NCBI RefSeq assembly: GCF_028416635.1
Contig: NZ_CP114013.1
Coordinates: forward strand, 1,302,001 to 1,366,000
Length of the DNA: 64,000 nucleotides
From: Baekduia alba
GTDB lineage: Bacteria > Actinomycetota > Thermoleophilia > Solirubrobacterales > Solirubrobacteraceae
Direction of reading: 5' to 3'
Below, piece by piece: positions 62,184 to 64,000 of this stretch (its first letter is position 1; each line of letters begins with the position of its first letter). A program made the translations under genes and the position numbers. The notes under the pieces are model-generated. The model had not been told where the DNA came from. It did not search any database and was given only the letters and a program-made list of their open reading frames with translations.

Positions 62184-63574
62184 GCGAGATCCGCGAGGTC
62201 GACGTGGTCGTGCTGGGCGCGGGCCCTTCCGGCGAGGTGATCGCCGGGCGCCTGGGCGGCCGCGACCTCGAGGTCGCGATCGTGGAGGACCGGCTCGTCG
62301 GCGGCGAGTGCTCGTTCTGGGCGTGCATGCCGTCCAAGGCGCTGCTGCGCCCGGCCCAGGCGCTGGCCGAGGCGCGGCGCGTGCCGGGCGCGCGCGAGGC
62401 GGTCACCGGCCCGCTGGACGTGGCCGCGGCGCTCGAGCGCCGGACCGAGGTCGTGCACGGCTGGGACGACAGCGCGCAGCTGCCGTGGCTCGAGGAGCGC
62501 GGCGTGATGCTCGTGCGCGGCCACGGGCACATCGCGGGCAAGCAGGTCGTCCATGTCGGCGACGTCATCCTGCGGGCGCGCCGCGCGGTCGTCGTGTCGG
62601 TCGGCACGGCGCCGCTGATCCCGCCGATCCCCGGCCTGGCCGAGGTCGATCCGTGGACCAACCGCGAGGCGTCGCAGGTCCGCGACGTGCCGGCGTCGCT
62701 GATCGTGCTCGGCGGCGGCCCCGTCGGGTCCGAGCTGGCGCAGGCGTTCGCGACGCTCGGCGCGCGCGTGACGCTGCTGGAGCGCGAGGACCACCTGCTC
62801 GGGCGCGACGAGCCGTTCGCGGCGGAGCTCGTGGCGGAGGGGTTGGTCAGGGCGGGCGTCGACGTCAAGTGCGGCGTGAGCGCGACCGCGGTGTCGCGCG
62901 GTGCCGACGGGCGCGTGACGGTCGCGACGTCGGCGCACGGCGCGATCGAGGCCGACGAGATCCTGGTGGCCTCGGGCCGGCGGCATCTGACCGAGGACCT
63001 GGGGTTCGAGGCCGTCGACGTCGCGATCTCCGCCCACCCGCCCGGCTCGGTCGAGGTCGGCGACGACCTGCGCGTCGCGGGCCACGACTGGCTCTACGTC
63101 GTCGGCGACGCCAACGGCCGCGCGCTGCTCACCCACGAGGGCAAGCACCAGGCGCGCCTGGCCGCCGACCAGATCTGCGGCGACGCCGGCGCGCTTCTGC
63201 GGACCACGACCCCGCCCACCCCGCCGCCGCGCGTGACGTTCACCGAGCCCCAGGTCGCGGCCGTCGGGCACACCGAGGCCAGCGCGCGCGAGGCCGGGCT
63301 GCATGTGCGGGTGGTCGACGTGTCGACCGACGGCACCGCCGGCGCGTCGTTCCACGGCAAGGGCGGCGGCGGGACCTCGCGCATCGTCGTCGACGAGGAC
63401 CGGCGCGTGATCGTCGGCGCCACGTTCGTCGGCGTCGACGTCGCCGAGTGGCTGCACGCGGCGACGATCGCGATCGTCGGCCAGGTGTCGCTCGACGACC
63501 TCTGGCACGCCATCCCGGCGTTCCCGACGCGCAGCGAGGTGTGGTTGAACCTCTTGCAGGCATACGGGTTGTAG
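62180..63574 (+). CDS. Pyridine nucleotide-disulfide oxidoreductase
   Basis: A 464-residue flavoprotein: FAD motif VVVLGAGPSGEVIAGRLG, redox cysteines Cys44 and Cys49 (GGECSFWACMPSKALL), NAD motif IVLGGGPVGSELAQAFATLGA, FAD motif YVVGDANGRALLTHEG, and the C-terminal PAFPTRSEVW similar to the mercuric reductase/lipoamide dehydrogenase dimer end. The substrate is probably a low-molecular-weight or protein disulfide. It is third in the ECF operon and starts at GTG overlapping the anti-sigma stop. A hairpin closes the unit. Confidence 0.88.
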   Translation: MSEIREVDVVVLGAGPSGEVIAGRLGGRDLEVAIVEDRLVGGECSFWACMPSKALLRPAQALAEARRVPGAREAVTGPLDVAAALERRTEVVHGWDDSAQLPWLEERGVMLVRGHGHIAGKQVVHVGDVILRARRAVVVSVGTAPLIPPIPGLAEVDPWTNREASQVRDVPASLIVLGGGPVGSELAQAFATLGARVTLLEREDHLLGRDEPFAAELVAEGLVRAGVDVKCGVSATAVSRGADGRVTVATSAHGAIEADEILVASGRRHLTEDLGFEAVDVAISAHPPGSVEVGDDLRVAGHDWLYVVGDANGRALLTHEGKHQARLAADQICGDAGALLRTTTPPTPPPRVTFTEPQVAAVGHTEASAREAGLHVRVVDVSTDGTAGASFHGKGGGGTSRIVVDEDRRVIVGATFVGVDVAEWLHAATIAIVGQVSLDDLWHAIPAFPTRSEVWLNLLQAYGL

Positions 63575-63588
63575 GGGCCGGGAAGGGC

Positions 63589-63616
63589 GGAGGGCATGAG
63601 CACGCTCACGCCCTCC
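63589..63616 (+). terminator. Hairpin closing the ECF operon
   Basis: GGAGGGC (63589-63595) pairs with GCCCTCC (63610-63616); inside, TGAG/CTCA extends the stem after one mismatch. It begins 14 bp after the oxidoreductase stop. There is no T tract. The ATG inside this stem (63596) opens an Arg-rich frame that I do not call. Confidence 0.5.
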
Positions 63617-63757
63617 AGCGACCTCGTCTGCTGGGCGCGGTCGCCATCGGCGCGGAGGCGGCGCTGGTGTCGGTCGACGCGGCGCTGGCGCAGGAGAGCT
63701 TCCGCTCCTCGCCGCCGCGGCGGCGCGGGCGCCGCGGGTGAGCCAGCCGGCCGGCCC

Positions 63758-63786
63758 TTGAGCCCGCCGGAGCCGTCCGGTACCGT
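63758..63786 (+). promoter_or_regulatory. Promoter of the leader ORF and final gene
   Basis: TTGAGC (63758-63763), 17 bp, TACCGT (63781-63786). The expected start is about 63793, only a few bases before the ATG at 63797, so the leader peptide would be translated from an almost leaderless mRNA. Confidence 0.6.
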
Positions 63787-63796
63787 TGCCCGCCAC

Positions 63797-63838
63797 ATGC
63801 AGCACCTCCTTCGAGTAGCGATCACCAGCGCCCCTTAG
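63797..63838 (+). CDS. 13-residue leader peptide (sORF)
   Basis: ATG at 63797 opens 13 codons (MQHLLRVAITSAP) ending at TAG 63836-63838. Codons 3-7 contain CACCTCCTTCGAGTA, which includes a perfect match to the ribosomal anti-Shine-Dalgarno (ACCTCC) and the left arm of the stem with the next gene's RBS region. A ribosome on this ORF would open that stem. CTT, CGA and GTA codons, rare in this GC-rich genome, are clustered at positions 5-7. No known attenuation peptide is recognised; it has no run of one amino acid. Confidence 0.55.
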   Translation: MQHLLRVAITSAP

Positions 63839-63899
63839 CGGCCCGCGGAAGCGGGTCCGGCGACTGGCCGTTCTCGCTCCTACTCGAAACTCCGGAGGT
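63804..63899 (+). ncRNA. Structured 5' leader sequestering the ribosome binding site
   Basis: Outer pairing: ACCTCC (63804-63809) with GGAGGT (63894-63899), the RBS of the gene at 63905. Next: TTCGAGTAG (63810-63818) with CTACTCGAA (63880-63888), 9 perfect pairs, contiguous with the first on the 5' side and separated by a 5-base bulge on the 3' side. Inner: CGA/TCG (63819-63821/63874-63876), CCAGCGCC (63825-63832) with GGCGACTGG (63859-63867, one bulged A), and GGCCCGC/GCGGGTCC with a GGAA loop (63840-63858). A long coaxial hairpin with the leader ORF stop in it. Confidence 0.7.
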
Positions 63900-63904
63900 A
63901 CCTC

Positions 63905-64000
63905 ATGTCCATGTCGTTGTCCTACGCCAACGACCTGCGGGCGGCGCCGAACACGTTCCGCCCGTTCCGTCCCGACCCCGTCCAGCCGGCCGCGCTGAGC
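63905..64000 (+). CDS. Unknown protein, N-terminus only (cut by the window edge)
   Basis: ATG at 63905 (or the ATG two codons later) opens a frame that stays open to the end: 32 residues beginning MSMSLSYANDLRAAPNTF and continuing with FRPFRPDPVQ. The GGAGG at 63894-63898 is six bases away and is the sequence hidden by the leader structure. No signal peptide. The fragment is too short to place in a family. Confidence 0.6.
   Translation, partial: MSMSLSYANDLRAAPNTFRPFRPDPVQPAALS

What the first reader, a model, noticed from the sequence alone, without database searches (positions are those of the whole stretch)
63758..63999. Leader ORF and RBS-sequestering RNA hairpin upstream of an uncharacterised gene
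Seen: a promoter-like TTGAGC-17-TACCGT, a 13-codon ORF starting within a few bases of the predicted transcript start, and a 15-base left arm inside that ORF that is complementary (6+9 bp) to the RBS and the sequence before it of the next gene. Two inner helices with small bulges lie between. Known: pairing of RBS with ACCTCC blocks initiation. Inferred: translation of the leader, or stalling at a codon in it, unfolds the hairpin and frees the RBS; or the inner helices form a ligand-binding RNA. I do not recognise it as a described riboswitch or attenuator class. The signal is strong because independent elements agree in position.
Basis: partly seen in the sequence, partly recalled or inferred. 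Interest (0 to 1): 0.85.

Follow-up and report, generated by a model that had tools for sequence, protein, structure and literature searches.

The report
Conserved leader ORF with RNA hairpin
Just before an enzyme operon in some soil actinobacteria sits a tiny conserved reading frame folded into an RNA hairpin, which probably lets the ribosome control how much enzyme is made; it looks like an undescribed member of a known kind of gene switch.

Summary
In detail: hexamers, 13-codon ORF (63797-63838) and 6+9 bp pairing to the RBS are present. The element is conserved. The next gene (63905) is nitroreductase-like and is followed by a KAT-II/LysN-type PLP aminotransferase. The leader occurs once per genome in 5 of 7 genomes held of the window's genus and 7 of 7 of Solirubrobacter (two are one strain). 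In Solirubrobacter it lies directly before the aminotransferase, with no nitroreductase between. All 11 distinct copies have a 10- or 13-codon ORF, peptide ...RVAxxx[AT][PL]*, stop codon in an internal loop, and a hairpin (P2/P3) with compensatory changes. CGAGTAGC is identical in all; its codons CGA and GTA are almost absent from the genes examined. An exact-pattern scan of 84,980 species gave 8 loci, all known copies. Masking of the start site by the leader is strong in the window but clear in only 4 of 11 copies, and swap tests give it little support as a co-evolving feature. Best reading: a ribosome-controlled translational attenuator of the aminotransferase operon. Translation, stalling and the signal are inferred. 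No Rfam match; the paper searches made found no description.

The parts
63758..63786 (+). promoter-like TTGAGC-17-TACCGT; the -10-like box ends 10 nt before the leader start
   Evidence: sequence; TTGAGC/TTGAGT-17 also in L004 and L006, a TAC -10-like box in all 5 loci of the genus (my reading); the strict scan finds none
63797..63838 (+). leader ORF, 13 codons, MQHLLRVAITSAP*, predicted leaderless (start 0-4 nt from the predicted transcript start)
   Evidence: frame, start (ATG/GTG) and stop (TAG/TAA) kept in all 11 distinct leaders; upstream in-frame peptide not conserved
63812..63819 (+). invariant CGAGTAGC, codons CGA GTA GC(N)
   Evidence: identical in all 11 rows of A3; CGA 1 of 175 Arg and GTA 0 of 195 Val codons in 6 genes of this genome
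63804..63818 (+). left arm of P1 (anti-RBS ACCTCC + TTCGAGTAG)
   Evidence: fold and duplex tests
63825..63832 (+). P2 left strand (CCAGCGCC), inside the leader ORF
   Evidence: covariation
63833..63839 (+). asymmetric internal loop with the leader stop codon (its last base may pair)
63840..63857 (+). P3 hairpin (GGCCCGC-GGAA-GCGGGTC) right after the leader stop codon
   Evidence: covariation
63859..63867 (+). P2 right strand (GGCG-A-CTGG)
   Evidence: covariation
63880..63899 (+). right arm of P1 (CTACTCGAA 63880-63888) and Shine-Dalgarno GGAGGT 63894-63899
63905..64000 (+). start of the 171-aa nitroreductase-like gene (continues past the window; a PLP aminotransferase follows 52 nt after it)

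Best explanation
A cis-acting leader of the nitroreductase/aminotransferase operon, working as a ribosome-controlled translational attenuator. Shown by sequence comparison and computation: a conserved 10- or 13-codon ORF starts at or next to the predicted transcript start; its 3' half is one strand of the covarying P2 helix, its stop codon lies in a loop beside P3, and its 5' half can pair with the translation start region of the next gene. Inferred: when no ribosome is on the leader, the hairpin closes and the next gene is poorly started; a ribosome that dwells on the leader (at the CGA-GTA codons, or at the [AT][PL]-stop end) keeps the helices open and frees the start site. No intrinsic terminator was found in the window's copy, so control is more likely at translation. 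The signal that makes the ribosome dwell is unknown.
For: ORF frame, start, stop and C-terminal pattern kept in all 11 distinct leaders. P2/P3: 96.2% of 132 cells paired, 5 of 12 pairs with two-sided changes, covariation score reached by 0 of 500 shuffles, slid controls 33-48% paired. In the window the leader raises the cost of opening the start region to 19.8 kcal/mol (12.5 with the leader occupied), reached by 0 of 100 shuffled leaders; occupying the leader lowers the cost in 10 of 11 leaders, by 0.3 to 7.3 kcal/mol. Same aminotransferase downstream in two genera although the gene order differs. CGA and GTA are among the rarest codons in the genes examined, and none of the 45 tRNA genes that ARAGORN confirmed has a UCG anticodon for CGA; CGA is translated more slowly than CGC/CGU in Salmonella (PMC4046918, passages). 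No terminator-like site. Mechanistic precedent: toiL (PMC12121999, passages).
Against: Occlusion of the start region by the leader is not seen in L005 (91 of 100 shuffles as high), L083 (49) and L085 (38), and is weak in L006, L043, L080 and L081 (9-16 of 100). P1 duplex is not significant in L043 (p 0.42 and 0.24) and borderline or worse in L005-L007 (0.047-0.17). Swap tests: a left arm prefers its own right side in L003, L004, L006, L007 (by 0.2 only) and L043, not in L005; but a right side prefers its own left arm only in L004 and L043, and swapping whole leader ORFs often masks the start region as well as or better than the native one. A right arm of Solirubrobacter type occurs in L057, which has no leader. 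No transcript-start, expression or ribosome data. Pro before the stop is Leu in L080, L081 and L085.
Confidence: 0.45

Rival explanations
1. The leader is translated constitutively and the hairpin has a fixed role: it sets the basal start rate or mRNA stability, and senses nothing.
For: Occlusion differs widely among homologues and leader swaps mask as well as native ones; orthologous aminotransferase genes in related genera do without the leader.
Against: The invariant rare codons CGA-GTA and the fixed distance to the stop codon are hard to explain by a passive hairpin.
Confidence: 0.25
2. A ligand-binding riboswitch, with the ORF incidental.
For: Covarying helices, start-region pairing in the window; a pyrimidine-rich segment after P2 is similar in several leaders.
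Against: No Rfam family; the P3 loop varies in length and sequence, and the conserved unpaired bases coincide with the stop codon; start, frame and stop are kept in all 11 leaders.
Confidence: 0.12
3. Binding site of an RNA- or DNA-binding protein centred on CGAGTAGC.
For: CGAGTAGC is invariant while its pairing partners differ in place and sequence.
Against: Only one copy with the structure per genome; not palindromic; lies in frame as R-V-A with only the last base of GCN varying.
Confidence: 0.1
4. Chance: GC-rich DNA folds easily and the ORF is accidental.
For: One leader (L007) folds only somewhat better than shuffles (11 of 200 as low).
Against: Conservation in two genera with covariation, and six of the seven Solirubrobacter leaders were found by gene order, not by the RNA model.
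Confidence: 0.03

Closest known systems
toiL-topAI uORF of E. coli (and the ermCL/ermC type of translational attenuation)
   Same: Short ORF whose own bases pair with the next gene's ribosome-binding site; ribosome stalling in it is proposed to free that site (PMC12121999, passages read).
   Different: No related sequence was seen; here the ORF is predicted leaderless, precedes an aminotransferase operon and has invariant CGA-GTA codons; stalling not shown.
Leaderless short-ORF cysteine attenuators of mycobacteria (Canestrari 2020)
   Same: Leaderless short ORF as attenuator of an operon in an actinobacterium (seen here only in passages and the reference list of PMC9094748).
   Different: No Cys codon in any of the 11 leaders here.
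ilvB-II motif uORF of Corynebacterium
   Same: Conserved RNA motif with a uORF before an amino-acid gene in Actinomycetota (PMC10272879, abstract only).
   Different: ilvB-II is described as a transcription attenuator with peptides enriched in branched-chain residues; here no terminator was found.

Membership tests
ribosome-mediated translational attenuator (ermC/toiL type) | short translated leader ORF upstream of the gene | tested here: inconclusive
   ORF conserved in all 11 distinct leaders; translation itself not testable
ribosome-mediated translational attenuator (ermC/toiL type) | leader or spacer bases mask the next gene's start region | tested here: inconclusive
   clear in 4 of 11, weak in 4, absent in 3; swap test mixed
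ribosome-mediated translational attenuator (ermC/toiL type) | signal-dependent ribosome stalling in the leader | not testable with these tools
   needs toeprinting or ribosome profiling
transcription attenuator (trp/his/ilvB-II type) | intrinsic terminator between leader and gene | tested here: not met
   0 terminator-like sites in L002 1600-2100, window's genome only
transcription attenuator (trp/his/ilvB-II type) | several codons for the regulated amino acid | tested here: inconclusive
   no long run; 2-4 Arg per leader in Solirubrobacter, 1-2 in the window's genus (peptides); the enzyme's substrate is unknown
mycobacterial leaderless cysteine attenuators | polycysteine leader | tested here: not met
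   no Cys in any of 11 leaders
known riboswitch or RNA family (Rfam 15) | match to a covariance model | tested here: not met
   no match to the leader with E up to 10 among 4227 families; the one listed hit lies at 63541-63616 with 18.4 bits against a cut-off of 80

The most novel reading that the evidence does not exclude
The invariant CGA-GTA pair is a dedicated decoding-speed sensor: where the genes examined almost never use these codons and CGA is read only through a tRNA with anticodon ACG (inosine, by established knowledge), the leader gates the aminotransferase operon by how fast that pair is decoded, so the switch reports charging or anticodon modification of two specific tRNAs rather than the product amino acid.
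Probability: 0.12. Interest if true: 0.7.

Novelty: new member of a known kind. Interest (0 to 1): 0.5.

Why it matters
It appears to be an undescribed leader-ORF RNA family in Solirubrobacter and a related genus, a group for which the paper searches made here found no described leader peptide or riboswitch. It gives a compact case for asking whether rare codons themselves are the sensor, and it suggests translation-dependent control of an aminotransferase operon whose substrate is unknown.

Tried and rejected
Rfam search of 63500-64000: no family for the leader. R1 order search (232 genomes): besides the 5 genus loci and L043, five weak hits (L044-L048, E 0.0037-0.094) were rejected because they lack CGAGTAGC (alignments). 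R2 class search (399 genomes): 8 strong hits, all known leaders; 7 weak ones (L095-L101, E 0.0017-0.08) rejected on score; of these only L095 was read (it looks like the inside of a coding region). A second weak hit in the own genome (27.9 bits) lies in what reads as a moeA-like coding sequence (my recognition). R2 phylum search (396 genomes): only the window's genome. The large searches score 12-16 candidates per genome (150) under strict filters, so absence is not proof; a leader with another core than CGAGTAGC could be missed. A longer in-frame ORF (63596-63838) was rejected: its upstream part is not conserved and other leaders have other in-frame stops. A model in which freed P2/P3 strands mask the RBS when the leader is occupied was not supported: occupation lowers the opening cost in 10 of 11. 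In some searches most minus-strand loci were read in the wrong orientation; corrected. Of the 26 aminotransferase loci without leader, the printed stretch of L070 lay inside the gene and L075 was not printed; all 26 were covered by the motif search and R2, but L075 holds only about 230 nt upstream. One search printed nothing (wrong file).

Full report
What is there. The window ends inside a gene; in the whole genome it is G000:C1:1302001-1366000. The gene that starts at 63905 encodes 171 aa, weakly nitroreductase-like (PF00881, E=3.1e-4, 21.4 bits against a cut-off of 23.5). A 404-aa PLP aminotransferase follows 52 nt later, nearest in the PDB to KAT-II/LysN-type enzymes (aminotransferase II homologue 1x0m 2.3e-91, alpha-aminoadipate aminotransferase 2egy 4.6e-87). 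Rfam has no family for the leader.

Conservation in the genus. Relatives of the nitroreductase-like protein were found in 30 of 146 genomes of the family (E up to 0.001). In the window's genus, 5 of 7 genomes held have it preceded by the same leader: MQHLLRVAITSAP, VRHLLRVAITSAP, VMQVLRVAHAGTP, MPQVLRVAIASAP, MQHLRRVANASAP (V = GTG start). G007 has the aminotransferase orthologue but no nitroreductase match and no leader; G009 (65% complete) has no nitroreductase match, no leader and only a distant aminotransferase. The five RNAs share the inner hairpin; z runs from -4.2 to -1.7, and the outer stem of L005 differs.

A second genus. A covariance model from these five found one leader outside the genus, in G136 (E=1.6e-4). 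There the leader (MSRIRRVARTTAP) stands directly before the orthologous aminotransferase, with no nitroreductase between. I then read upstream of the aminotransferase orthogroup (38 genomes at E<1e-129). All 7 genomes held of genus g23 carry the leader there; 26 other orthologues (25 from other genera, and G007) show none: no GAGTAG close upstream and at most 16.1 bits with R2 against 67-83 for the leaders. In G008 leader and aminotransferase lie on different contigs. Six of the seven g23 leaders were found by gene order, not by the RNA model. Named records show that g23 is Solirubrobacter. Two of the seven (G132, G133) are one strain, CPCC 204708, with the same leader, so there are 11 distinct leaders. 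On the aminotransferase tree the leader label (12 of 39 rows) needs 2 changes, against 10.5 for shuffled labels; the backbone is unresolved and one origin is not ruled out.

How far it reaches. A pattern common to all the leaders gave 8 loci in the genome collection (84,980 species), and all 8 are leaders already seen. Four known genomes (G000, G005, G010, G134) were not among the 8; the tool says that records near the window's genome may be left out. With R2, 12 of the 14 genomes of the two genera have one hit of at least 67 bits and nothing else above 28 bits (R2 was built from these leaders, so scores are not independent). Class and phylum searches (399 and 396 genomes) gave no further convincing copy.

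What is conserved. (a) CGAGTAGC, identical in all 11 rows. (b) The frame: eight codons from CGA on, R V A x x x [A/T] [P/L], then the stop, with TAG/TAA changes and synonymous changes in Ala and Pro codons. (c) P2 and P3: 96.2% of 132 cells paired, 5 of 12 pairs with changes on both sides (1 of 500 shuffles as high), covariation score 0.283 against 0.118 in shuffles (0 of 500), and 33-48% paired when slid. With one gap moved by hand, 149 of 154 cells pair and 7 of 14 pairs have two-sided changes. (d) The stop codon lies in the 5' internal loop between P2 and P3 in the folds, its last base pairing in some. (e) The leader start lies 7-10 nt after a -10-like TAC or TAG box (my reading), hence predicted leaderless.

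Rare codons. In six genes of this genome CGA is 1 of 175 Arg codons and GTA 0 of 195 Val codons; in six Solirubrobacter aminotransferase genes CGA is 2 of 184 and GTA 0 of 122. Of 46 tRNA hits, ARAGORN confirmed 45; the Arg anticodons are CCG, UCU, CCU and ACG, so CGA is presumably read by the ACG tRNA. In Salmonella CGA is translated more slowly than CGU and CGC (PMC4046918, passages).

The start-site pairing. In the window, opening the start region costs 19.8 kcal/mol, 12.5 with the leader occupied, and no shuffled leader reaches this (0 of 100). Shuffles as high, of 100 each: L003 0, L082 0, L004 2, L007 3; L006 9, L080 9, L043 13, L081 16; L085 38, L083 49, L005 91 (L084 was not run; its leader equals L083's). 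In Solirubrobacter GAGGCGAG pairs with CUCGCCUC (codon 3 to 6) and GCC with GGC at the start codon (p 0.004-0.017 against shuffled right sides, not independent); L043 is not significant (0.42). The leaderless orthologue L057 has UCUCGCCUC near its start too. In swaps, a left arm prefers its own right side in L003, L004, L006, L007 (barely) and L043, not L005; a right side prefers its own left arm only in L004 and L043; whole-leader swaps show no general advantage of the native pair. So masking is real in the window's model and plausible in several relatives, but it is not the most conserved part.

Mechanism. No terminator-like site follows and no riboswitch family matches. The best reading is a translational attenuator in which a ribosome on the leader opens the helices. 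What makes the ribosome dwell (slow CGA-GTA decoding, the [AT][PL]-stop end, Arg supply in the Arg-richer Solirubrobacter leaders, or an inhibitor) is inferred. The closest worked-out case is toiL, whose ORF pairs with the next RBS and whose stalled ribosomes free it (PMC12121999, passages). Leaderless attenuators are known in mycobacteria (cited in PMC9094748, passages), and a uORF motif before ilvB in Corynebacterium (PMC10272879, abstract).

Literature. Leader peptide with Solirubrobacter gave 1 paper, unrelated by its title and not read; riboswitch with Thermoleophilia 0; uORF with Solirubrobacteraceae 0; leader peptide with translation attenuation, ribosome stalling and aminotransferase 0. 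Broader searches were seen as listings, apart from the papers named above. The library holds open-licence papers only.

Noticed in passing
L081, L082, L085, shortly before the -10-like box of the leader: An inverted repeat TCCGATTGACGGA lies just before the -10-like box in three Solirubrobacter leaders; a possible operator.
   Followed up: no
L005-L007, L043, L080, L081, L085, just 3' of P2: A segment like YGTCCCYGY follows P2 in both genera (altered in L003, L004, L082, L083); role unknown.
   Followed up: no
L080-L083 and L085, codon 5 of the aminotransferase: The rare Pro codon CCT (7 of 194 Pro codons in six genes) sits in the right arm of P1 in these Solirubrobacter genes; L043 has CCC there and a different left arm.
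   Followed up: partly
L002 3707-4129: 141-aa protein after the aminotransferase, before a GlpX-like gene (my recognition), has no Pfam or NCBIfam match at E up to 1.
   Followed up: no
L106 and L108 (G132 and G133): Two species entries of the genome collection bear the same strain name, CPCC 204708, and the same leader.
   Followed up: partly
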